A stretch of 12,608 nucleotides of DNA from Rhodospirillaceae bacterium (lineage in GTDB: Bacteria > Pseudomonadota > Alphaproteobacteria > Rhodospirillales > Magnetovibrionaceae). Each line of letters starts with the position of its first letter. The stretch's first letter is position 1. Both the position numbers and the translations under genes were made by a program. Where the stretch lies: the NCBI GenBank assembly GCA_002732845.1, contig NVSZ01000005.1, forward strand, positions 45,926 to 58,533. Direction: 5' to 3'. The notes beneath the pieces are model-generated. The model did not search any database. It worked only from the letters and a program-made list of their open reading frames with translations, and was not told the origin of the DNA. Of the stretch, positions 1,096-12,262 are shown in pieces.

Positions 1096-2925
1096 ATGCA
1101 TCTCAGAAATTGGCAACAAAAAATCATCGATGACTTTCCGTCGATCATCCAAAAATACCGCAGATTTATCCTGAAAGCGCCAACGGGCGCTGGCAAGACC
1201 GTGCTGGCAAGTGAGATCGTAGAGCGATTTTATAAGAACCAGAAAATTATCGTGCTCTGCCACCGTCTCGTGCTGTTAGAGCAACTTGAAACGGCCCTAA
1301 GCCGAAAACACTCTGTCCGCAAGTTAACAGCTGCGGACACGGGTCCTGCGTTTGAGGGCTACGATATTTTGCTCTCGACCAATATGCGCGCCAAGGAGAT
1401 GTTGGCGGACGCCATATCCAAAGCCGACCTTATCATTGTGGACGAAGCGCATCGCGTATCGCCCAATGGGACGGCTTACAAACGGATTATCGATAATTTT
1501 AACGAAAACGGCAAACCCAACGCGCACTTCATTGGGCTAACGGCTTCGCCCGAGCGCATCACAAACGATCAGCGTGACCAGCTTAACCTAGCCTTTGACA
1601 CCATCATCGATTGCGCCAATATCGAAGACTTAATTGCAGAAGGTGTTTTGGTGCAGCCGGTCTATCGGCCCCATTTTGTGCACGATCTGAACCTCGACAG
1701 TATCGACATCAGTTCGGGTGATTTTCCCGTTACCAAACTGTCGCCCGCGATCATTAAATCATCCATGATCGATTATGCGACATGGAGTTATAACGAAGAG
1801 CGTTTGAAACTTTCTAAACCGATCTCGGCCTGGTTCTGTGCCGATATCAGCGTCGCCGAAGTCACGTTAAGCAAAATCCAAGAATTCGGCATCAGTGCCG
1901 CGATCATCACGGCGGGAACATCGATCAAGGAACGCATGGAACTGTTGGCCCGCCATGAAAGCGGTGAGATTGAAGCCATGGTCTCGGTGGGTGTATTGAC
2001 CGAAGGCTGGGACAATCCCTATTGCAACATCATCGTCCATCTTCGCCCAACCTTGTCGAAAGTTCTGTGGGGTCAGTCCGTTGGTCGTGGGCTACGTTCT
2101 GCTCCGGGCAAAGATAAATGTGTGATCATTGATGTGAGCTCGAACTGGAGCACATTCGGCCCGGTGGAAAAACTAGAATGGAGCCTGTGGAGCACACGCC
2201 GTTCCCATGTAAAATACATGAACAGGTTCAATTGGATTGGCAAACAACAAGACGGCGAGGAAGTCCACGATACCTATTTGCTGTGTAAAAATGAATTAGA
2301 GAACAAAATGCGCTGTTCTCATATTTATCGGAAAAACGCCTATAAGGACGACACCTGTCCTGTGTGTGGTACGTATGCTGCAACCGATATCTACAAGGAA
2401 CAAAAACTCGACAGTTCACTGAACGAAGGCGGTTTGCATCGTTTGTTCTTTGAACGTGCCCCACAGGTTTATGGTGAAATGAACCTGTCTGTTTGGGAAA
2501 GCCTTGGCGGTACGGCGTGGAAATCTGCAACCGACAAAGAAAAAGTGTTTCTTGGGTTCTGCATGGCTTTCGCAGAGGTGTCGGGTGATGAAACAAACTC
2601 GGAATCTGAATATTGGGATGCCGCCCTCGCCACAGAAGCGCACATCCGCGCACATCTGGTGAAGCATAAATTCTGGATTAAAAAACAGGAAGACTTTGAA
2701 TTATCACTCATTGCCGATGGTATGCTTGCGGGTAAACTGATCCGGACCTTACAGGCCCATTACGGGATATCTCTTTGCGGTATAGCCTTTCAAACGCACA
2801 CGCCCGCTGAAAATGAACGCAAATACCAAAAAGCGATCAAAATTGCCGAAAGGCTCGCGATGCTTGGTTGCTCTTCACAAGACAGCCTACCCTATTTCAA
2901 CGCCGCCGATCATTTGACAGCATGA
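1096..2925 (+). CDS. RadD-like superfamily II DNA/RNA helicase with zinc-finger-like segment
   Basis: This 609-residue protein has the full set of SF2 helicase motifs: an RNWQQ Q-motif-like start, Walker A APTGAGKT (28-35), DEAH box (D116-E-A-H119), motif III LTAS (148-151), motif V TEGWDNP (302-308) and motif VI QSVGRGLR (327-334). After the helicase core there is a C407-x-H409 ... C421-PV-C424 cluster, possibly with C397, that could bind zinc. Length and order (helicase core, then cysteine cluster, then a variable C-terminus) resemble E. coli RadD/YejH, a repair helicase of about 586 residues. The last 190 residues are unrecognised. The ATG at 1096 directly precedes the conserved N-terminus, but its ribosome site is weak (AGGC). 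The gene stands alone between two non-coding stretches, so it could be housekeeping repair or part of an accessory or phage-derived region; neither is proven. Confidence 0.8.
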   Translation: MHLRNWQQKIIDDFPSIIQKYRRFILKAPTGAGKTVLASEIVERFYKNQKIIVLCHRLVLLEQLETALSRKHSVRKLTAADTGPAFEGYDILLSTNMRAKEMLADAISKADLIIVDEAHRVSPNGTAYKRIIDNFNENGKPNAHFIGLTASPERITNDQRDQLNLAFDTIIDCANIEDLIAEGVLVQPVYRPHFVHDLNLDSIDISSGDFPVTKLSPAIIKSSMIDYATWSYNEERLKLSKPISAWFCADISVAEVTLSKIQEFGISAAIITAGTSIKERMELLARHESGEIEAMVSVGVLTEGWDNPYCNIIVHLRPTLSKVLWGQSVGRGLRSAPGKDKCVIIDVSSNWSTFGPVEKLEWSLWSTRRSHVKYMNRFNWIGKQQDGEEVHDTYLLCKNELENKMRCSHIYRKNAYKDDTCPVCGTYAATDIYKEQKLDSSLNEGGLHRLFFERAPQVYGEMNLSVWESLGGTAWKSATDKEKVFLGFCMAFAEVSGDETNSESEYWDAALATEAHIRAHLVKHKFWIKKQEDFELSLIADGMLAGKLIRTLQAHYGISLCGIAFQTHTPAENERKYQKAIKIAERLAMLGCSSQDSLPYFNAADHLTA

Positions 2926-3112: not shown

Positions 3113-3154
3113 TACGTTAATCTTCCATCTGAATTGCTACTCATAGTAGGTTTT

Positions 3155-5434
3155 ATGAAATCCAGCCAAAGCGCCATTGTCAAAGACCTTGTTCTCGTCG
3201 GTGGCGGCCATAGTCATGTCATCGTGCTTAAGAAATTTGCCATGAACCCGTTGCCCGGCGTTCGCCTAACGGTTATCGCGCGCGACGTCGATACGCCTTA
3301 TTCCGGTATGCTGCCGGGCTTTGTGGCCGGTCATTATGAATTTGATGACGTGCATATTGACCTGCGCCCCCTCTGCCAATTCGCCGGGGCGCGCCTTTAT
3401 CACGATGAAGCGACGTTGCTAAACTTGCAGGACAAGCAGGTCATCTGCAAGGGGCGCCCGGCCGTTTCCTATGATGTGCTGTCGGTCAATATTGGCTCGA
3501 CTCCTGGTTTTATGGGCATCGCCGGGGCCGAGAATTTCACCACACCCGTCAAGCCAATCAACACCTTTATCAATCGTTGGCACCAATTGGTCGAGCGTGT
3601 GCTGGCTCATCCGGGTTGCCACCGGATCGGTGTCGTCGGCGCTGGGGCTGGCGGCGTAGAGCTGTTGCTTGCGATGCAATTTCGGCTGAAGAGCCTGCTC
3701 GCCGAACAAGGACGGACCACCGATAGCCTCGAGTTCCACCTGATTTGCAGGTCGCAAACCATATTGCCTGACTTCGGCGTCGGTTTGCAACGCCGCGTTG
3801 GGCGGGTTCTATCGGCGCGCGGCGTGCACGTTCACACCAACGCCGAAGCCGAAAACGTGGCCCAAGGTGCCCTCACAATGAGGGGCGGCAAGACCATCGA
3901 ATTGGATGAAATCTTATGGGTCACCGCGGCCGGTGCGCCGTCGTGGCTTCGCCAATCGGGTCTGGCTGTCGATGCGGCCGGGTTTATTGAAGTTCAAGAC
4001 ACTTTGCAATCAATGTCTCACCCGGACGTCTTCGCCGCCGGAGATATTGCAGCCGTGGTCAATCATCCTCGGCCAAAAGCCGGTGTCTTTGCGGTTCGTC
4101 AGGGGCCGCCGCTGGCCGATAACCTGCGCCGCGTACTGATCGGTCAGTCGCCCCGTGCTTTTACGCCGCAAAAAAACGTTCTGGCTTTGATCAGTACCGG
4201 CGACAAATATGGCATCGCTTCAAGGTGGGGAAGGGCGATCGGGGGCAAATGGGTGTGGACGTGGAAAGACCGCATCGACCGTAATTTTATGCGTAAGTTT
4301 AACGAGCTTCCTGAGATGGCCCCCGAACAGGCGGTTGCGCTGAACCCCGGGCTTGCTGATCAGGCGACCCTCAATGATATTTCCGCCGTTGCCATGCGCT
4401 GCGGTGGCTGTGGGGCCAAGGTCGGGGCCAATGTCTTGACCCGCGCCTTGGCCGATCTGGAACCGGTCGCCAACGCAGATGTTCTGGTTGGCCTTCATGC
4501 CCCGGACGACGCCGCTGTCGTGCAAATTCCCCCCGGCAAGGTGATGGTGCACACTGTTGATTACTTCCGCTCCTTTATTGATGATCCTTACATCTTTGGA
4601 CAAGTCGCCGCGAACCATGCCTTGAGCGACATCTTCGCCATGGGTGCCGTTGCTCAATCTGCGTTGGCCATTGCCACCGTTCCCTACGGCTTGGAAGCCA
4701 AGGTCGAGGCCACGTTGCGCGAAATGATGAGCGGCGCGATGGAGGTCCTTAATGACGCTGGTGCGACATTGGTCGGTGGCCATACCAGTGAAGGGCCAGA
4801 ACTGGCGCTGGGGTTTTCTGTTAACGGCTTAGCCGACCCGGATGCCATTCTTCAAAAGGGCGGCATGGCCCAAGGCGATATCTTAATTCTCACCAAGGCG
4901 CTCGGCACGGGGACTTTGTTTGCCGCCGACATGCAACATTGTGCCAAGGGACGGTGGATCGACGGTGCCGTGAAGTCCATGGTTCAGTCAAATCGCTTGG
5001 CCGCGGACTGTGTGTTCAACTTTGGTGCCAGCGCGTGTACGGACATCACCGGGTTCGGTTTGTTGGGCCATACGGTGGAAATGACCAAGGCTTCCGGCGT
5101 TGACGTTGAAATTGATTTGGATGCCTTGCCAATTTTGGACGGTGCCCAAGATACGGTCCGTCTTGGAATTTTAAGCTCACTGCAGCCTGCGAATATCCGG
5201 CTGCGTCGGGGCATCAGAAATCTTGAAGAGATGAAAAACCACGAACGCTATCCGCTGATTTTCGATCCGCAAACATCCGGCGGACTTTTGGCCAGCCTGC
5301 CCGCTGAGAAAGCCCAATCGTGCCTGCAGGCGTTGCATGAATTAGGGTACAGCAAAGCCGCCATCGTTGGCCGGGTGACTGCTGAAAGTAATCATCTGGA
5401 ACCGGTTACGCTGGTCTCGCAATTGAATTTATAA
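3155..5434 (+). CDS. senC: Selenide, water dikinase (SenC/SelD type) with N-terminal FAD/NAD(P) oxidoreductase domain
   Basis: This 759-residue fusion should make selenophosphate from selenide and ATP in the cytoplasm. Residues 1 to about 390 are a pyridine nucleotide-disulfide oxidoreductase domain: FAD-binding GGGHSH (16-21), NAD(P)-binding GAGAGG (162-167) and FAAGDIA (293-299). This is the family known as an N-terminal partner of SelD; its exact role is not established. Residues from about 400 are SelD: the active-site segment C416-GG-C419-GA-K422, where C419 and K422 match Cys17 and Lys20 of E. coli SelD, then DDAAV, VDYF, NHALSDIFAMGA, VGGHTSEGPE and DPQTSGGLLA. The catalytic residue is cysteine, not selenocysteine. 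The ATG at 3155 has a nearby AGTAGG ribosome site; a TTG at 3134 would add seven hydrophobic residues. Placement beside senB and senA supports the SenC role, and it may also supply MnmH. The stop overlaps the convergent senB by 29 bp. Confidence 0.92.
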   Translation: MKSSQSAIVKDLVLVGGGHSHVIVLKKFAMNPLPGVRLTVIARDVDTPYSGMLPGFVAGHYEFDDVHIDLRPLCQFAGARLYHDEATLLNLQDKQVICKGRPAVSYDVLSVNIGSTPGFMGIAGAENFTTPVKPINTFINRWHQLVERVLAHPGCHRIGVVGAGAGGVELLLAMQFRLKSLLAEQGRTTDSLEFHLICRSQTILPDFGVGLQRRVGRVLSARGVHVHTNAEAENVAQGALTMRGGKTIELDEILWVTAAGAPSWLRQSGLAVDAAGFIEVQDTLQSMSHPDVFAAGDIAAVVNHPRPKAGVFAVRQGPPLADNLRRVLIGQSPRAFTPQKNVLALISTGDKYGIASRWGRAIGGKWVWTWKDRIDRNFMRKFNELPEMAPEQAVALNPGLADQATLNDISAVAMRCGGCGAKVGANVLTRALADLEPVANADVLVGLHAPDDAAVVQIPPGKVMVHTVDYFRSFIDDPYIFGQVAANHALSDIFAMGAVAQSALAIATVPYGLEAKVEATLREMMSGAMEVLNDAGATLVGGHTSEGPELALGFSVNGLADPDAILQKGGMAQGDILILTKALGTGTLFAADMQHCAKGRWIDGAVKSMVQSNRLAADCVFNFGASACTDITGFGLLGHTVEMTKASGVDVEIDLDALPILDGAQDTVRLGILSSLQPANIRLRRGIRNLEEMKNHERYPLIFDPQTSGGLLASLPAEKAQSCLQALHELGYSKAAIVGRVTAESNHLEPVTLVSQLNL

Positions 5435-6368
5435 TGCGCAACAAAGCTTTCTGCTCATGGGCGGGCTCGAATTTTGCTTTTAACATCTGGCCATGACGGG
5501 TCAGCGTCTCAAGGAATGCTGCATCTGTTTCGGCGCGGTCCAGCAAATGCGCCAATTGGGCCTCATCACCAACCGGATAATAGCCGGGGTAATCGTCGCC
5601 CAATAAGCCTACGTTGCCGGCAATGTCGCTGGCGATGATCGGCACATCCGCGACGATGGCTTCGGAAATTACATTTGCGCCGCCTTCCTGTGTGGAGCTG
5701 ATCACCATTAATCTGGTTTTCGACAATTCGCGCCGTACCCGCCATCCCGGCACTTCGCCCTGCCAATGATAGCGCGGGTTGTTGGTCATTTCGGCGTTGG
5801 CTTGCGTGTGGAAGTCTGGGGTGGTGGCCTTGCCCAAATGGATCACCCGAATACGCGAGGACGGCGGCAAAAGCCGAGCCGCCAGCGCCGTTCTAAAGGG
5901 ATCTTTTTCGTCCCGCAGGTGGCCGATAACACAAATGTCGAAGTTTTTTTGTGCCGGGTGCCGGGGGCTTGCTAAAGGCATGGCCGATTGGCGAATCACA
6001 TGAAGCTTGCCACGAAGCGCCAGCGGAAGCTCCTTGCCAATAAGGTCGTGCAGGCAAATCAGCACGTCGGCCATTTCCATCGAGCGAAGCGTAGTTTTGG
6101 GCTGGGTTTTCAAGAACGTATTGATGTCGGTTCCACCGAGGCCAACCACCAGCGGTCCGTCCGAAAAACGCGCCCGATAGCGTTTGATCGCCGGGGCGCT
6201 GTGCCAGGCGTGAATGGCGATCATTAAATCTGTGTCTTCGCCGTTATAGTCGACTTCGACACGCACCCGGTGACCGCCGGTGCGCAATATCTTGGCCCAA
6301 CGCAGCGCTGTTGTGCGATTGCCGCTTTTAGAGTATTTTTTGGCTGGCGTGATCAGACTAATTTTCAC
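5406..6368 (-). CDS. senB: Selenosugar synthase SenB (GT4-like glycosyltransferase)
   Basis: The 320-residue product matches the SenB family, earlier known only as a putative glycosyltransferase family. SenB uses selenophosphate and a UDP-sugar to form a carbon-selenium bond, giving a selenosugar. Visible features are an N-terminal GNRTTALRWA segment (16-25), GLGGTDIN (76-83), GHLRDEKDPFR (149-159), and a GT-B C-terminal domain with an E-x7-E motif in EGGANVISE (E228 and E236), followed by DYPGYYPVGD (259-268). The start is GTG at 6366-6368, supported by a strong GGAGG ribosome site seven bases away. It is on the opposite strand from the other sen genes: its 3' end overlaps senC by 29 bp and its start is 28 bp from senA. 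Family call is strong; the sugar donor cannot be read from sequence. Confidence 0.9.
   Translation of the reverse strand: MKISLITPAKKYSKSGNRTTALRWAKILRTGGHRVRVEVDYNGEDTDLMIAIHAWHSAPAIKRYRARFSDGPLVVGLGGTDINTFLKTQPKTTLRSMEMADVLICLHDLIGKELPLALRGKLHVIRQSAMPLASPRHPAQKNFDICVIGHLRDEKDPFRTALAARLLPPSSRIRVIHLGKATTPDFHTQANAEMTNNPRYHWQGEVPGWRVRRELSKTRLMVISSTQEGGANVISEAIVADVPIIASDIAGNVGLLGDDYPGYYPVGDEAQLAHLLDRAETDAAFLETLTRHGQMLKAKFEPAHEQKALLRIINSIARPA
6311..6339 (+). promoter_or_regulatory. Possible senA promoter lying inside senB
   Basis: TTGTGC (6311-6316) and TATTTT (6334-6339) are 17 bases apart on the plus strand, within the first codons of senB read on the other strand. Because senA and senB start only 28 bp apart, a senA promoter would have to lie inside senB, and this is the best candidate I see. 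The matches are weak. Confidence 0.22.
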
Positions 6369-6396
6369 TTAACATCCTCCAAAATCAGGATACCGT
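6369..6396. promoter_or_regulatory. 28-bp divergent gap holding both ribosome binding sites of senB and senA
   Basis: The gap between the senB GTG (6366-6368, minus strand) and the senA ATG (6397) is just 28 bases. It carries the senB ribosome site (CCTCC at 6376-6380, read as GGAGG on the minus strand, seven bases from its start) and the senA site (CAGGA at 6386-6390, six bases from its start). There is no room for promoters here, so each gene's 5' leader must be transcribed from within its neighbour. Confidence 0.75.
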
Positions 6397-7710
6397 ATGA
6401 CCGTTCCAATCACCACCGCACAAATCATTGAAAATATGCAAGATGCCCGGAACCGAACTTTGGAACTGATCGGTGACCTGAGTGACGAGCAACTCATGGG
6501 GCCTAAGCTGCCAATCGTTAACCCGATGCGCTGGGAAATTGCCCATGTTGCCTATTTCTACGAATTTTTTATTCTGCGCCAACTGTATGGCATGGAGTCC
6601 GTTCTGGGGGCGCGCGCCGACCAGCTTTACGATTCCATCGCCGTTGCTCATGACTTGCGCTGGGATCTTCCGCTGTTGGACCGGGGCGAGACATTGTCTT
6701 ACATGCAGGCGGTCTTCGAGCTATTGGTCGAGCGACTAGATGGCCATATGGCGACAGAGCAAGACAGCTTTATCTATCAGTTTGGCATCTTCCATGAAGA
6801 TATGCACACCGAAGCTTTCTTGTGGGCGCGTCAAACGTTGGCCTACCCGACGCCTAAGTTGGCCAACGCGGCTGATGTTTCGACGGAACGAAAAGCTGGC
6901 TCGTATGCTGGCTGGGCCCACGTTCCGGGCGGGACATTTTACTTAGGCGCATCCAAAAACGCGCCGTTCCTGTTCGACAATGAAAAATGGGCGCACCCGG
7001 TGATCCTCAAATCCTTCGAGATTGCAAAGGCCCCCGTCACCAACGGCGCGTTTCAAGCCTTTGTCGATGAAGGCGGCTATCACCAAGAGGCCTTTTGGGA
7101 TGCGCAAGGTTGGGCATGGCGCACGGAAGCTGGCGCGGAGTATCCGGTCTATTGGCAACCAGATGGCCCTGCCAATTGGCTGGTGAGACGGTTTGATCGG
7201 ACCTTAAAGCTGCCCGTGCATGAACCCATTATTCATGTGAATTGGCATGAAGCCAACGCCTATTGCCGTTGGGCCGGGGTGCGCTTGCCGACGGAAGCCG
7301 AATGGGAAGCGGCAGCTCTGGGCGAAGCCGACAGCGACGGCAAGCTGGCCACAACTAAACGGCGCTACCCTTGGGGGGACAGCTTGCCAGATACCACACG
7401 CGCGAATTTAGATGCTCGGGCTTTGGGTCCCGTTGACGTGGCGGCCCTAGGGCATGGTGACAGCGCGTTTGGATGTCGACAGATGCTTGGCAACGTCTGG
7501 GAATGGACGGCCGACACGTTTGAGGCTTATCCGGGATTCAAGGCGGATGCCTATAAGGAATATTCAGACATGTTATTTGGCGATACCAAAGTGCTGCGCG
7601 GTGGCGCATGGACCACACGGGGGCGCATGGTTCACGGCACTTATCGAAACTATTTTCCGGCCCATCGTCGCGACGTGTTCGGTGGATTTCGCACATGTCG
7701 GGTGACTTGA
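6397..7710 (+). CDS. senA: Selenoneine synthase SenA (EgtB-like nonheme iron sulfoxide-synthase family)
   Basis: This 437-residue protein has the two-domain EgtB architecture. The N-terminal DinB-like domain carries the likely iron ligands H50 (in WEIAHVAYFYE) and the H133-EDM-H137-T-E139 motif. The C-terminal formylglycine-generating-enzyme-like domain runs from about residue 172 and shows VNWHEANAYCRWAG (281-294), RLPTEAEWE (296-304), GNVWEWTAD (365-373), LRGGAW (400-405) and GGFRTCRV near the end. EgtB enzymes join hercynine to a sulfur donor with O2; SenA instead uses a selenosugar to make the C-Se bond of selenoneine. The choice of SenA over EgtB rests mainly on the adjacent senB and senC and on the absence of egtA, egtC or egtE nearby. 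The ATG has a CAGGA ribosome site six bases upstream. egtD follows after two bases, so they are probably translationally coupled. Confidence 0.88.
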   Translation: MTVPITTAQIIENMQDARNRTLELIGDLSDEQLMGPKLPIVNPMRWEIAHVAYFYEFFILRQLYGMESVLGARADQLYDSIAVAHDLRWDLPLLDRGETLSYMQAVFELLVERLDGHMATEQDSFIYQFGIFHEDMHTEAFLWARQTLAYPTPKLANAADVSTERKAGSYAGWAHVPGGTFYLGASKNAPFLFDNEKWAHPVILKSFEIAKAPVTNGAFQAFVDEGGYHQEAFWDAQGWAWRTEAGAEYPVYWQPDGPANWLVRRFDRTLKLPVHEPIIHVNWHEANAYCRWAGVRLPTEAEWEAAALGEADSDGKLATTKRRYPWGDSLPDTTRANLDARALGPVDVAALGHGDSAFGCRQMLGNVWEWTADTFEAYPGFKADAYKEYSDMLFGDTKVLRGGAWTTRGRMVHGTYRNYFPAHRRDVFGGFRTCRVT

Positions 7711-7712
7711 TC

Positions 7713-8696
7713 ATGGATAGTGAAACCGCTGCGGCCTCTTTTGCCGATGTCCGCCCCGACTTGGAAATATTTCTGAGCGAGGCTTTGGCGGGTCTTGGCG
7801 CAACTCCGAAAACGTTACCGAGTAAGTATTTTTACGATGACCACGGCAGCGTTTTGTTCGAACAAATTTGTGAATTACCAGAATATTACGTGACCCGCGT
7901 TGAAATGGCGCTGTTGAAAGACATCGCGGACGACGCAGCAACAGAAATCGGTCCCGGGGCGAGGATCATCGAATACGGCACCGGATCTTCTGAGAAAATC
8001 AATATTTTGCTGTCGGCGCTCGATAACCCGGCGGCTTTTGTCGGTGTGGATATTTCCGGTACGGCCCTGCAAGGGGTTACGCAAGAGCTGGCCAAAAGGT
8101 TTCCAGCCCTTGCCGTGCACGCCGTATGCGCGGACTTTACGCAGCCCTTCGACTTGCCCGACATAGCGGGACCGGGCCGAAAAGTGGTGTTTTTTCCGGG
8201 TTCAACGCTGGGTAACTTTGCCCCCGATCAAGCGCTTGAGTTTATGGCTAACGCGGCCAGCATAGCTGGACCCGGCGGCGGAATGTTGATCGGCATTGAC
8301 TTGAAAAAAGACGAAGCTGTTCTGAACGCCGCCTATAACGATGCTCAGGGCGTGACGGCCCAGTTTAACCTCAATCTTTTGAGGCGCTTAAACACTGAAT
8401 GCGGTGCAGACTTTGATCTTGATACCTTCAGCCACAAAGCCTTTTATAACGCAGATGCCGGGCGCATAGAGATGCACTTGGTTAGTCAATGCGCACAGGT
8501 GGTGTCGTTGGGCGGACAATCGATAACGTTCGCCAAGGGGGAAACCATCCACACCGAGAACTCATACAAGTATTCGGTTTGTGAATTTCAAGAGCTCTCC
8601 CGGCGCGCCGGATTTGAGCCCTTGCATGGATGGACGGATTCTGAGCAAATGTTCAGCCTGCATTATTTGTCCGTCGCACCGCAGGAAGCGGTGTAA
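7713..8696 (+). CDS. egtD: L-histidine N-alpha-methyltransferase EgtD
   Basis: EgtD uses three S-adenosylmethionine molecules to convert histidine to hercynine, the substrate of SenA. The 327-residue length is close to the usual 320 or so. Conserved features include PSKYFYDDHGS (36-46), ELPEYYVTRVE (54-64), the SAM-binding EYGTGSSEK (87-95), FFPGSTLGNF (160-169), whose Asn fits the substrate-binding Asn of mycobacterial EgtD, and GETIHTENSYKY (276-287), containing the conserved substrate-binding acidic region. The chosen ATG at 7713 lies two bases after the senA stop; an in-frame ATG at 7695 would overlap senA by 16 bases and add six residues. The placement gives the cluster its own hercynine supply. 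Confidence 0.94.
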   Translation: MDSETAAASFADVRPDLEIFLSEALAGLGATPKTLPSKYFYDDHGSVLFEQICELPEYYVTRVEMALLKDIADDAATEIGPGARIIEYGTGSSEKINILLSALDNPAAFVGVDISGTALQGVTQELAKRFPALAVHAVCADFTQPFDLPDIAGPGRKVVFFPGSTLGNFAPDQALEFMANAASIAGPGGGMLIGIDLKKDEAVLNAAYNDAQGVTAQFNLNLLRRLNTECGADFDLDTFSHKAFYNADAGRIEMHLVSQCAQVVSLGGQSITFAKGETIHTENSYKYSVCEFQELSRRAGFEPLHGWTDSEQMFSLHYLSVAPQEAV

Positions 8697-8730: not shown

Positions 8731-9840
8731 ATGTCAAACCACATTGTACCTAAAGAACAGTTCGAAGATTTGTTGATCGCGGACACGCCGTTTATCGATG
8801 TGCGGGCTGAAATTGAGTTTTCTAAGGGCGGTTTTCCGACGTCGACGAACATCCCCATTTTACGTGACGATGAACGCAAACTTGTTGGCACCTGCTATAA
8901 AGAAAAAGGCCGTCAAGCCGCCATTAAATTGGGGCATTCACTGGTCACCGGAAAGACCAAAGATCAACGCATTCAGGCGTGGTGCGATTTCGCGAAGGCC
9001 CAAGAAAATGCCCATATTTATTGTTGGCGCGGCGGCATGCGCTCTAACTATGCGCAGGCCTGGATGTCTGAAGCCGGTATCGACGTCCCTTTGATTGACG
9101 GAGGTTTTAAGGCGCTTCGCCGGTTCATTATTGACCAATTTCAGGATGCGGCGGAACGGGTGCCGATTTTACGGATCGGTGGAAAAACCGGAACGGCAAA
9201 GACACCGCTGGTGAATGCGGTTGAGTTCAGCATAGATTTGGAAGGTCATGCCAATCACCGGGGATCAAGCTTCGGACGGCGGGTATCTGGGGCCCCCAGC
9301 CAAATTGATTTTGAACACGCCTTAGGCATCGATTTATTACGCAAACGCCGTCAATACCCGGACCGCACATTGATCGTAGAAGATGAAGGCCGCCGCATCG
9401 GACCAAACGCTGTTCCGCCCGAATTTTATAATAAAATGCACAATGCCAACGTTGCTATCGTTGAAATGCCTATGGAGTTTCGAGTCCAGCGCATTGTCCA
9501 AGAATACGTAATTGAGATGACACAGGAGTTTTTCGATACGCACCCGACGAATGGATGGGAATTGTTCGCCGCTTATTTGACACAAAGCTTGTCGCGGGTG
9601 CAAAAACGCTTGGGACTGGAAAATTATAAACGGATTGCAGTGCTTATGGATGAGGCGCTGCGCCGACAAAATGAGCACGGTGACACCAGTGGACATGAAG
9701 CGTGGGTCACGGCAATGCTAAAGGATTATTATGATCCCATGTACGCCTATCAACTTGAAAAACAATCCAACAAAATCATCTTTCAGGGCAAGTATGACGA
9801 CGTTCTTAATTGGGTGAATGAAAAAAGCCGATCAATTTGA
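8731..9840 (+). CDS. mnmH: tRNA 2-selenouridine synthase MnmH (SelU/YbbB)
   Basis: MnmH replaces sulfur by selenium at the wobble 2-thiouridine of tRNAs, using selenophosphate and going through a geranylated intermediate. The 369-residue protein has an N-terminal rhodanese domain (LIADTPFIDVRAEIEF, DDERKLVGTCYKEKG, LGHSLVTG) with the catalytic cysteine C98 in YCWRGGMRS, matching Cys97 of E. coli. The C-terminal part is a P-loop domain: GGKTGTAKT (150-158), DLEGHANHRGSSFG, EDEGRRIG, and the typical YYDPMYAYQLEK near the end. In the P-loop the usual glycine before the lysine is alanine (A156). The gene is 34 bp after egtD on the same strand with no terminator between, so it probably belongs to the senA-egtD transcript and shares SenC's selenophosphate. 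The ribosome site (CCGAGA) is weak. Confidence 0.95.
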   Translation: MSNHIVPKEQFEDLLIADTPFIDVRAEIEFSKGGFPTSTNIPILRDDERKLVGTCYKEKGRQAAIKLGHSLVTGKTKDQRIQAWCDFAKAQENAHIYCWRGGMRSNYAQAWMSEAGIDVPLIDGGFKALRRFIIDQFQDAAERVPILRIGGKTGTAKTPLVNAVEFSIDLEGHANHRGSSFGRRVSGAPSQIDFEHALGIDLLRKRRQYPDRTLIVEDEGRRIGPNAVPPEFYNKMHNANVAIVEMPMEFRVQRIVQEYVIEMTQEFFDTHPTNGWELFAAYLTQSLSRVQKRLGLENYKRIAVLMDEALRRQNEHGDTSGHEAWVTAMLKDYYDPMYAYQLEKQSNKIIFQGKYDDVLNWVNEKSRSI

Positions 9841-10069: not shown

Positions 10070-10294
10070 TTATGCCCTTGTGTTGGCTCGGTTGTGACCG
10101 ACGGGGTAAAAGCGTTCTGCATCACCCGGCAAGACTTCAATAATGCGTCCTAACAACCAACACAGGGGCTCTCCGATCAAGCGGATCAATTTACCCCGTA
10201 AGTGCGTGTTTCTAGGTCCCCCATCTGATGCGCAAACTTCGGGCAAGGGGCGCGTTCGACGAGCCACAAGATTGCCTTGATGCCAAACAAACAT
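10070..10294 (-). CDS. Possible short gene or 3' gene fragment, unrecognised
   Basis: An open frame of up to 74 codons ends at 10070. The last 40 or so codons (from about 10195 down) read like real coding sequence, with a LIGEPLCWLLGRIIEVLPGD stretch and ending RANTRA. The first 20 codons overlap the primase remnant on the other strand and look random. I recognise no family. It could be the 3' end of a broken mobile-element gene. There is no convincing ribosome site at the listed start, so treat the 5' limit as uncertain. Confidence 0.25.
   Translation of the reverse strand: MFVWHQGNLVARRTRPLPEVCASDGGPRNTHLRGKLIRLIGEPLCWLLGRIIEVLPGDAERFYPVGHNRANTRA
10101..10199. repeat. 10-bp perfect inverted repeat ACGGGGTAAA ... 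TTTACCCCGT
   Basis: ACGGGGTAAA (10101-10110) and its exact reverse complement (10190-10199) bound a 99-bp segment with 79 bp between arms. A second pair, TGTGTTGG (10079-10086) and CCAACACA (10157-10164), interlocks with it. The location is at the edge of mobile-element-like DNA. It may be a recombination or regulatory site, or a structured RNA; chance cannot be excluded. Confidence 0.45.
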
Positions 10295-10548
10295 GGCTTA
10301 ATTCAGCACCCCCCCTTACGGCCTTTATTAATGAACGTTGCAGTAGCAATGCTGATGCCTTTGTACCAATCAAAGCGCTGTATGAGGCTCTGAAGTTTTG
10401 GGCAGAAGAATGCGGCATCCGGAAAATCCCAACACGGAATACCGTGAAAGCTAACCTCGAAGGTCTTGGATATACAGTTCAGCGCCGTGATGCTGGAAAT
10501 GCCGTGTATGGGCTTGAATTAAACGGCTCACATTTCGGGGAACCCTGA
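10228..10548 (+). pseudogene. C-terminal remnant of a phage/plasmid-type D5/P4-family DNA primase
   Basis: The 106-residue frame shows, from residue 29, PLTAFINERC, an F-V-P-I-K-A-L-Y-E-A-L-K-F-W-A-E-E-C-G-I segment, PTRNTVKANLEGLGY and a final VYGLEL. This pattern (insert ... FINERC ... LYEA ... W-EE-G ... GY ... G-L) is what the extreme C-terminus of D5/P4-type primase-helicases of phages and integrated plasmids looks like; those proteins are normally several hundred residues. The ATPase and primase domains are missing: upstream the frame is closed by a TAG at 10213 and the DNA has no matching domain. I read it as the stump left by deletion of an integrated element. A small functional protein is a less likely alternative. 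Confidence 0.5.
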
Positions 10549-10960: not shown

Positions 10961-12262
10961 TCAATCTCTGATCGTCTCAAGCCACTGACAACGTTCGGCG
11001 ATCAATGTGGAGCTTGTATCCATTCCGATACCATCTGCGATGATGGATATGACCCGGTCATCGGCTTCGTAATCGTTGTGGGCGGTTGCCGGATTAGCAA
11101 ATTCTCCAAGACCTAAAAGATCAACCACGGGGGCAATGTTAATGGCCACGTTGACGACACGGGGGCAAAGCCTTGAATCTATATATTTGTCCGAAAATCC
11201 GGGCGGCAGAGAATAGCTGAGAATGTCATTGGGGTCACTGAAGGCCACCACGTTGAGTTCTTTAAACATCCGGTTTTTATAGTTTGGCCCATCCGCGCGG
11301 CAATACTGGTCAATCTGATTTGAAACCGTCGGGGCTTCTCGGCCTAGCTGTAACAGCGGCAATTGATTGGCCAACATGTAAATGGGGAAACGTTTGTTTT
11401 GCAGGGCTTGAAAGGTTTTTGAAAATTGAGCCTGATCCGCACCCGACAATTTATCCATGCCCTTTTGGGTCAGCGCGGCAATCCGTTGCAGACTGTCGAT
11501 GACCACACGACTGCCCAGACTGTGTGTGATCAAAGCATAATCGTCTTTTTCGGCATTGACCGGGTTAAGGCTTCGACACACGGCATTCGAAGTGTCGTCA
11601 TAACCCTGCCAATCTTTGCTGACCATCCAGCAAATAGACTGCCCGACCGCCTGCAGAATTTTTTCTTTGCTTTTGCCCAAATAAATCATCGGGTCGGGAA
11701 CATGGCTGTTGAAAAATTCTTTGATCATACGGTTCACAGTTGCGCGTTTAGAGGTCTGCGTTCCGGAATCATCAAAGGCCAATAACTCTTTTTCCGGGGC
11801 CAAAATATCCGACCACGTCAGTTCATAAAAAAGAAGCTCACGATCACGTTGCTTGTTGGTAAAACGTTGAATACGCAATTGACCAAGATCGTTTTCACCA
11901 TCTGTTTGCATCACGGACGGCGGGGCTTTTAAGTTAATTTCTTTATAGCCTTCGCTGATCACCGTGAGGTTCAGTTGGTGGGCAAGTTTTTCAGATAATC
12001 GAGCCGAATATCCGGGGATATGTTCGCCAATGCCATGAACCATCAAGACTTTAAGCGTGCGGTCATTTCCCCCGGACGTATTTGTTTGTTTATCGAGATC
12101 GGCCCGTAATCCGGGGAAGGCCGCCCCGCGAATTTCACACAGACGACGGTCTTCGGCCGCTGGACGGTCTAAAAACGCCTCGGTAATGCCTTTGGCAATA
12201 CTACCACACCCTGAAACGCTCAACGCAAACGCAACGGCTGTTAATTTATAGAGGGTTTTCAT
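10961..12262 (-). CDS. Lipoprotein with alpha/beta-hydrolase (lipase/esterase-like) domain
   Basis: The 433-residue product starts with a lipoprotein signal peptide: basic N-terminus, hydrophobic core and lipobox V16-S-G-C19, with Gly at +2, which favours the outer membrane. The mature part has an alpha/beta-hydrolase layout: an oxyanion-loop segment LMVHGIGEH (73-81), the nucleophile elbow T246-H-S248-L-G250, a SDPND loop (342-346) offering the catalytic Asp, and H395 in a TAHNDYE segment. Thr takes the place of the first Gly of the usual G-x-S-x-G. Substrate is unknown. The gene is divergent from the membrane-protein gene at 12355, with 92 bp between them. No clear ribosome site is visible before the ATG, but the signal peptide fixes the start. 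Confidence 0.8.
   Translation of the reverse strand: MKTLYKLTAVAFALSVSGCGSIAKGITEAFLDRPAAEDRRLCEIRGAAFPGLRADLDKQTNTSGGNDRTLKVLMVHGIGEHIPGYSARLSEKLAHQLNLTVISEGYKEINLKAPPSVMQTDGENDLGQLRIQRFTNKQRDRELLFYELTWSDILAPEKELLAFDDSGTQTSKRATVNRMIKEFFNSHVPDPMIYLGKSKEKILQAVGQSICWMVSKDWQGYDDTSNAVCRSLNPVNAEKDDYALITHSLGSRVVIDSLQRIAALTQKGMDKLSGADQAQFSKTFQALQNKRFPIYMLANQLPLLQLGREAPTVSNQIDQYCRADGPNYKNRMFKELNVVAFSDPNDILSYSLPPGFSDKYIDSRLCPRVVNVAINIAPVVDLLGLGEFANPATAHNDYEADDRVISIIADGIGMDTSSTLIAERCQWLETIRD

What the first reader, a model, noticed from the sequence alone, without database searches (positions are those of the whole stretch)
3155..8696. Apparently complete selenoneine biosynthesis cluster (senC, senB, senA, egtD)
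Seen: a SelD-type protein, a SenB-family glycosyltransferase with E-x7-E, an EgtB-like protein with H-x3-H-x-E and an FGE-like domain, and EgtD sit side by side. Known: in Variovorax paradoxus SenC/SenB/SenA make selenophosphate, a selenosugar and selenoneine, and EgtD makes hercynine. Inference: this organism makes selenoneine, with the hercynine step included in the locus. No EgtE-like lyase or gamma-glutamylcysteine gene is seen here, which fits the sen route and not the ergothioneine route.
Basis: partly seen in the sequence, partly recalled or inferred. Interest (0 to 1): 0.85.

Follow-up and report, generated by a model that had tools for sequence, protein, structure and literature searches.

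The report
Selenoneine gene cluster plus tRNA-selenium gene
An uncultured, probably alphaproteobacterial genome carries side by side all the genes expected for making the selenium antioxidant selenoneine, including the step that makes its histidine-derived precursor, plus a gene for putting selenium into tRNA, so one selenium-activating enzyme probably feeds two uses.

Summary
The four proteins match curated families over cut-off: Ndh-SelD fusion, SenB, SenA, EgtD. The SenA model alone proves little: three of three OvsA-family proteins (ovoselenol enzymes) pass it too, and the nearest solved structures are OvsA and EgtB, not V. paradoxus SenA. Active-site columns decide: H85/W89/M136 as in SenA and OvsA, where EgtB has R, G or V, Q; and Y389/N418/Y419 where OvsA has M/Q/A. 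PDB 8ux5 records that M/Q/A to Y/N/F gives OvsA selenoneine activity. Catalytic residues of SenB, SelD and EgtD are kept. No SelA, tRNA-Sec, EgtE or EgtB over cut-off was found in the 81.5%-complete genome.

Missed: SenC is an oxidoreductase-SelD fusion, and mnmH (tRNA 2-selenouridine synthase) follows egtD. In a same-genus genome mnmH instead overlaps senC by 4 nt; one of 79 named loci has another type of mnmH near senA. So one SelD probably feeds two uses. The pathway is known; the pairing with mnmH is the unusual part. Selenoneine production is untested.

The parts
3155..5434 (+). senC: fusion of an Ndh-2-like FAD/NAD oxidoreductase (residues 11-382) and selenophosphate synthetase SelD (residues 414-746)
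   Evidence: TIGR03169 502 bits (cut-off 310), TIGR00476 304 (125); SelD active site C-G-G-C-G-A-K (CxxC); solved SelD relatives 3u0o, 2yye. TTG at 3134 is an alternative start.
5406..6368 (-). senB: selenosugar synthase (Se-glycosyltransferase), GTG start, convergent with senC (29-nt overlap), divergent from senA (28 nt apart)
   Evidence: TIGR04348 394 bits (300); N17, T20, R152, K155, E228, E236 align to V. paradoxus N20, T23, R155, K158, E231, E239
6397..7710 (+). senA: EgtB-superfamily non-heme iron selenoneine synthase, long form with full FGE domain
   Evidence: NF041186 473.5 (420); H50/H133/H137; Se-type H85/W89/M136; hercynine-type Y389/N418/Y419; model pLDDT 85.2
7713..8696 (+). egtD: histidine N-alpha-trimethyltransferase making hercynine (alternative start 7698)
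   Evidence: TIGR03438 408 (291); EgtD structures 4uy5 etc. 202 bits
8731..9840 (+). mnmH (selU): tRNA 2-selenouridine synthase, 34 nt after egtD
   Evidence: NF008751 475 (361), TIGR03167 331 (220); only match in the genome
6369..6396 (.). 28-nt senB/senA divergent intergenic stretch with a ribosome-site-like purine run for each gene (by eye)
   Evidence: sequence read directly

Best explanation
A selenium-metabolite locus. The SenC fusion makes selenophosphate (its N-terminal FAD domain probably reduces or shields the selenium supplied to SelD); SenB makes a 1-selenosugar from selenophosphate and a UDP-sugar; EgtD trimethylates histidine to hercynine; SenA (Fe, O2) joins the selenosugar to hercynine C2, giving a selenoxide that collapses to selenoneine. 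The neighbouring MnmH takes selenophosphate from the same, only SelD found, to make 2-selenouridine in tRNA. Shown here: gene identities, catalytic residues, SenA-type active-site pattern, co-location. Inferred: the reactions in this organism, the role of the Ndh domain, the shared Se supply.
For: Family scores over cut-off for all five proteins. SenA columns: H85/W89/M136 as in V. paradoxus-type SenA 10 of 10 and OvsA 10 of 10, against R/G-or-V/Q in 31 of 31 EgtB; Y389/N418/Y419 against M/Q/A in 10 of 10 OvsA. PDB title of 8ux5: OvsA M401Y/Q430N/A431F is a hercynine-binding variant with selenoneine-biosynthetic activity; these are the same three columns. SenB catalytic set kept (residues from passages of PMC10891094 and PMC10702425). 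EgtD over cut-off in 44 of 49 searched genomes bearing senA+senB, as expected if hercynine is the substrate. In the genome: one SelD over cut-off, one MnmH, and no SelA, tRNA-Sec or EgtE over cut-off. Of 27 Ndh-SelD fusions taken from the phylum, the 5 closest to the window are all senB-linked, 0 of the other 22. mnmH next to sen genes in two more genomes: G007, overlapping senC by 4 nt, and L082, another MnmH subfamily 667 nt from senA.
Confidence: 0.86

Rival explanations
1. The EgtB-like protein is an OvsA-type selenoxide synthase that works on histidine, so the locus makes ovoselenol or a related 5-selenohistidine.
For: Best PDB sequence hits are OvsA 8ux5/8u41; NF041186 also scores 3 of 3 OvsA-family proteins over its cut-off; window+OvsA is only borderline rejected (p 0.053).
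Against: Y389/N418/Y419 instead of OvsA's M/Q/A in 10 of 10; OvsA rows form their own clade, 100/100; egtD sits in the locus; EgtD is the only one of the eight window proteins scanned with a methyltransferase match.
Confidence: 0.05
2. The protein is an ordinary EgtB making an ergothioneine precursor; SelD and MnmH are a selenouridine pair and senB is incidental.
For: EgtB model matches full length at 339 bits; EgtB structure 4x8b is the second family hit; no AU rejection of window+EgtB.
Against: Below the EgtB cut-off (339 against 360); R87/Q137-equivalent EgtB positions are H85/M136; senB beside senA in 60 of 79 relatives; no EgtE over cut-off found in the genome.
Confidence: 0.03
3. Only the pairing with mnmH is chance: a laterally acquired sen quartet landed beside a resident mnmH without functional coupling, and selenouridine and selenoneine are independent.
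For: GC 0.529-0.570 for senC/B/A/egtD against 0.486 for mnmH and 0.447-0.482 for flanks; senB over cut-off in 2 of 5 genomes of the genus; an mnmH relative in only 1 of 79 named loci; in 10 of 49 sen genomes mnmH is present but not seen beside sen genes.
Against: In G007 mnmH lies on the other side of the cluster, overlapping senC by 4 nt; in L082 a different MnmH subfamily lies near senA; so three arrangements pair these genes. The window genome has only one SelD over cut-off.
Confidence: 0.27

Closest known systems
sen cluster of Variovorax paradoxus (SenA, SenB, SenC)
   Same: SenB, SenA and a SelD-type SenC side by side; SenB catalytic residues and SenA active-site pattern kept
   Different: SenC carries an N-terminal Ndh-like domain; SenA is the long form (V. 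paradoxus SenA lacks roughly 50 aa of the FGE part); egtD and mnmH are in the locus. The original paper (Kayrouz 2022) is not held, so its own list of clusters was not seen.
OvsA, ovoselenol selenoxide synthase (PDB 8u41, 8u42, 8ux5)
   Same: Fold, iron triad, Se-type H85/W89/M136 columns; nearest by sequence
   Different: Y389/N418/Y419 instead of M/Q/A; egtD present
EgtB type I (PDB 4x8b)
   Different: H, W, M in place of R, V, Q; below EgtB cut-off; no EgtE found
Ndh-SelD fusions of marine metagenomes (PMC2398784)
   Same: Same domain order and CxxC in the SelD active site
   Different: That paper (passages) calls the fusions' functions not fully clear, expecting selenophosphate synthesis; here the fusion is in a sen cluster in a genome without detected SelA or tRNA-Sec
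MnmH/SelU (YbbB) tRNA 2-selenouridine synthase
   Same: Over the cut-offs of three MnmH models, NF008751, TIGR03167, NF008750, and below two others; rhodanese region with C-W-R-G-G-M-R-S aligned to 3g5j
   Different: Placed in a selenoneine locus

Membership tests
SenA (selenoneine synthase) | Score over the curated SenA model | tested here: met
   473.5 against 420; but the model also takes 3 of 3 OvsA-family proteins tested, so not discriminating
SenA (selenoneine synthase) | Se-type pocket (H, W, M) with hercynine-type Y, N, aromatic | tested here: met
   H85, W89, M136, Y389, N418, Y419
SenA (selenoneine synthase) | One clade with V. paradoxus SenA to the exclusion of OvsA and EgtB | tested here: inconclusive
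   Quick tree 90 SH-aLRT for; careful tree unresolved, AU p 0.20 for window+Vp, 0.485 for all SenA without OvsA
SenA (selenoneine synthase) | Joins hercynine and selenosugar in vitro | not testable with these tools
   needs enzyme assay
SenB (selenosugar synthase) | TIGR04348 over cut-off and residues N20, T23, R155, K158, E231, E239 | tested here: met
   394 against 300; all six conserved
SenC/SelD (selenophosphate synthetase) | selD model over cut-off; active-site Cys and Lys | tested here: met
   304 against 125; C-G-G-C-G-A-K. Essential Cys/Lys recalled from E. coli SelD.
EgtD | TIGR03438 over cut-off; substrate-site Tyr, Asn, Met, Glu, Ser | tested here: met
   408 against 291; counterparts aligned; the residue roles (Y56, N166, M252, E282, S284) are recalled, not from a call
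OvsA (ovoselenol synthase) | Histidine-type M/Q/A at the three specificity positions | tested here: not met
   Y/N/Y in the window, M/Q/A in 10 of 10 OvsA rows
EgtB (ergothioneine) | TIGR03440 over cut-off; Arg and Gln counterparts of R87 and Q137 | tested here: not met
   339 against 360; H85 and M136; roles of R87/Q137 from passages of PMC9103826
MnmH | tRNA_sel_U_synt over cut-off | tested here: met
   331 against 220; NF008751 475 against 361

The most novel reading that the evidence does not exclude
A compact selenium hub: one Ndh-SelD fusion supplies selenophosphate both to a self-contained selenoneine pathway (own hercynine step) and to tRNA selenouridine, without selenocysteine. If general, the Ndh-SelD fusions long noted in marine bacteria form two sequence clades with different sinks: one clade is senC (selenosugar and selenoneine), the other mostly supplies MnmH; and the Ndh domain is a dedicated selenium-reducing or selenide-handling module, since it stands alone beside senB in L011.
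Probability: 0.45. Interest if true: 0.6.

Novelty: new variant of a known kind. Interest (0 to 1): 0.43.

Why it matters
[quoted passage not shown] A locus with every step, hercynine included, in an uncultured bacterium is a candidate producer; a marine setting is only inferred from the label of its nearest named SenA relative (MAG BS150m-G9). The residue test (H/W/M plus Y/N/aromatic) separates SenA from OvsA, which the current curated model does not, so databases can be re-sorted. The split of Ndh-SelD fusions into a senB-linked and a largely mnmH-linked clade makes an old open question (what these fusions are for) directly testable.

Tried and rejected
Rejected: ordinary EgtB (below cut-off, other residues, no EgtE found); OvsA (other specificity residues); Sec trait in this genome (no SelA; seven tRNA-Sec matches, all below the gathering score, the best two being tRNA-Leu and tRNA-Ser). 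NF041186 score as proof of SenA was dropped. Tree topology as proof was dropped after the AU tests. Fold search does not separate the families.

Led nowhere: promoter/terminator scan gave 3 promoter-like and 7 terminator-like sites, both below shuffled means 5.3 and 9.4; Rfam 0 matches; no tRNA in the window. ORF 10961-12262 has no family in NCBIfam, Pfam or PHROGs. Plasmid collection: senB in 3 of 72,556 records. Phage collection: SelD-like partial hits in 4 of 50,697 records, not followed.

Rows dropped: two short SenA rows (L084, L088); 27 of 360 fetched proteins were used there; 112 of 138 rows in the quick tree, 58 in the careful one; L237 left out of the fusion tree (cut by contig end). 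CxxC was seen in 35 of 37 rows; L236 (over-long frame) and L237 (cut) were not scored.
Full report
WHAT IS THERE. The window is contig 9, 45926-58533, of an unnamed draft genome (2.63 Mb, 121 contigs, 81.5% complete). Order: phage-like helicase (1096-2925 +), senC (3155-5434 +), senB (5406-6368 -), senA (6397-7710 +), egtD (7698 or 7713-8696 +), mnmH (8731-9840 +), primase fragment (10228-10548 +), an unassigned ORF (10961-12262 -). Five proteins score over curated cut-offs: Ndh domain TIGR03169 502 and SelD TIGR00476 304; SenB TIGR04348 394; SenA NF041186 473.5; EgtD TIGR03438 408; MnmH NF008751 475. The EgtB model scores the SenA protein 339, under its cut-off of 360.

WHY THE SENA NAME NEEDED A TEST. 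By sequence the nearest solved chains are OvsA (307 and 298 bits) and EgtB 4x8b (274); V. paradoxus SenA scores 193. The NCBIfam SenA model also passes OvsA-family proteins: P0241 430, P0254 434, P0258 443 against 420, while V. paradoxus-type P0121 scores 525; a number of Marinobacter proteins 61-66% identical to OvsA carry the source name 'selenoneine synthase SenA'. So score or name alone cannot tell selenoneine from ovoselenol.

ACTIVE-SITE COLUMNS (138 aligned rows: window clade 28, other senB-linked 41, no senB beside 18, alphaproteobacterial EgtB 30, M. thermoresistibile EgtB 1, OvsA 10, V. paradoxus-type SenA 10). Iron ligands H50, H133, H137. Column 85: H in 27 of 28 window-clade rows, 41 of 41, 17 of 18, OvsA 10 of 10, Vp SenA 10 of 10; R in 31 of 31 EgtB. 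Column 89: W in all 107 SenA/OvsA-like rows; G (30) or V (1) in EgtB. Column 136: M in 106 of those 107; Q in 31 of 31 EgtB. Column 389: Y in 28 of 28 window-clade, 40 of 41, 14 of 18, 10 of 10 Vp SenA and 31 of 31 EgtB, M in 10 of 10 OvsA. Column 418: N in 27 of 28, 40 of 41, 15 of 18, 10 of 10 and 31 of 31, Q in 10 of 10 OvsA. Column 419: Y or F in 28 of 28 window-clade rows, A in 10 of 10 OvsA. PDB entry 8ux5 is titled OvsA M401Y/Q430N/A431F, 'a hercynine-binding variant with selenoneine-biosynthetic activity'; comparing the 8ux5 and 8u41 rows shows these are the three columns 389, 418, 419. The window protein carries naturally (Y/N/Y) nearly what made OvsA a selenoneine enzyme (Y/N/F). In M. 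thermoresistibile EgtB, Q137, N414 and W415 bind hercynine and two arginines bind gamma-Glu-Cys (passages of PMC9103826). The 4x8b chain counts used run one above the paper's numbers, so Tyr377 corresponds to window Y386.

TREES. Quick tree of 112 rows: the window sits in a 25-row clade (96) within a 78-row clade (90) that also holds V. paradoxus-type SenA and excludes OvsA and EgtB. Careful tree of 58 rows: 18-row window clade 98/98, Vp SenA in a 13-row clade 95/94, OvsA 100/100, EgtB 100/99, but their deep order is open. AU tests: window+OvsA p 0.053, window+EgtB 0.14, window+Vp SenA 0.20, all SenA without OvsA 0.485. The tree alone is therefore not decisive.

NEIGHBOURHOOD. Of 79 named loci encoding SenA relatives (the best 80 of 540), 60 have senB beside senA, 37 divergent and 23 in tandem, 19 none (starts extrapolated; 13 of the 79 hold under 8 kb of DNA). 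The four-gene set Ndh-SelD, senB, senA, egtD is not unique to the window: it is also seen in L029, L072, L216, L220 and G007. An mnmH near sen genes is rare: 1 of the 79, L082, where another MnmH subfamily (NF008752, 442 bits, cut-off 266) lies 667 nt from senA on the other strand with one small gene between; senA there is cut by the contig end and senB is not visible. MnmH is over cut-off in 10 of 49 searched sen genomes; the surroundings of 7 of the 10 were fetched and hold no senA or senB, and the shorter MnmH loci of the other three show none either. In the window's family senB is over cut-off in 2 of 18 genomes and mnmH matches in 3 of 18. In same-genus G007, mnmH ends on the senC start (ATGA overlap) near the end of contig 109, and contig 25 carries the rest of senC, senB, senA, egtD; the contigs share a 109-base word ending at the end of contig 109 and starting at base 229 of contig 25, so mnmH-senC-senB-senA-egtD is probable there, though the first 228 bases of contig 25 differ. 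G016 of the same family has mnmH beside a divergent stand-alone SelD and no senB over cut-off. The two traits are thus separable; the window, G007 and L082 bring them together in three arrangements with two MnmH subfamilies.

NDH-SELD FUSIONS. PMC2398784 (passages) reports such fusions as about 40% of Cys-type SelDs in ocean data, all with CxxC; PMC4561486 (passages) calls them by far the commonest SelD fusion and says Sec genes were found in those genomes. Over 398 genomes of the phylum, TIGR03169 is over cut-off in 42 (43 places): the window, 27 fusions with SelD, one cut by a contig end, 14 stand-alone frames. I fetched 41 loci covering all but the window. The five fusions closest to the window (NDH 56-57% identical) all have senB; of the other 22 none has senB and 16 have an MnmH relative, six neither. 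A tree of 36 fusions puts the 14 senB-linked rows in one clade (100/98); nine of those 14 (the window and eight loci found through SenA) were chosen with senB near, so only the five are an unbiased count, and they are not independent lineages: three (L217-L219) share a family and show senB but no senA in the fetched DNA, so their product is open. On the Ndh domain itself: in L011 a stand-alone Ndh protein (TIGR03169 487 bits) without SelD sits beside senB, and 2 of the 14 stand-alone frames (L255 and the second one of L216) share a locus with sen genes, but the other 12 do not. Its reaction is unknown; a reductive step in selenium supply is my inference.

LIMITS. No metabolite or expression evidence. 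The genome is incomplete. The key papers (Kayrouz 2022, 2024) are not held; what they say is taken from citing papers (PMC9814287 read whole; passages of PMC10702425, PMC10891094, PMC10903977, PMC13188914) and from PDB titles. The literature searches listed no title or abstract on a joint sen-mnmH locus, but the library is partial, so I do not claim it is unreported.

Noticed in passing
Their Se sink was not found.
   Followed up: partly
P0254, P0258 and other Marinobacter proteins: Proteins about 61-67% identical to OvsA are named 'selenoneine synthase SenA' by source databases; the two tested exceed the SenA model cut-off yet carry OvsA's M/Q/A residues, so they are probably misnamed.
   Followed up: yes
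L039-L042, L057, L060, L064, L067, L078, L083: SenA relatives with no senB seen beside them; nearly all of the no-senB rows still show the Se-type H/W/M columns. These ten group together, next to L035 which has senB. SenB may be elsewhere, or the selenium donor differs.
   Followed up: no
window 6369-6396 and 37 divergent loci: senB and senA start back to back; 19 of 37 divergent pairs are 27 nt apart or less (window 28), so each promoter probably lies inside the other gene.
   Followed up: partly
window 1096-2925 and 10228-10548: A phage-type helicase (phrog_16, 211 bits) and the C-terminal fragment of a P4-type primase flank the Se genes; with the GC step and patchy presence in the genus this looks like an accessory island.
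   Followed up: partly
window 10961-12262 (-): 433-aa protein with a lipoprotein-like N-terminus and a hydrolase-like VHGIGEH motif (by eye); no NCBIfam, Pfam or PHROG match.
   Followed up: no
L082 4635-5444 (+): Membrane protein resembling TauE/SafE-type permeases (by eye; NCBIfam only far below cut-off) in the locus that holds senA and another mnmH; a possible selenium or sulfur transporter.
   Followed up: no
phage records OR846590, MT836694, MT835821, OR845817: SelD-like stretches (33-39% identity to the window's SelD domain) in records filed as phages; may be host DNA.
   Followed up: no
L122 bases 1-228 (G007 contig 25): First 228 bases differ from the senC continuation expected from contig 109; an open minus-strand frame there reads like part of another gene (by eye). 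Possible assembly fork.
   Followed up: partly
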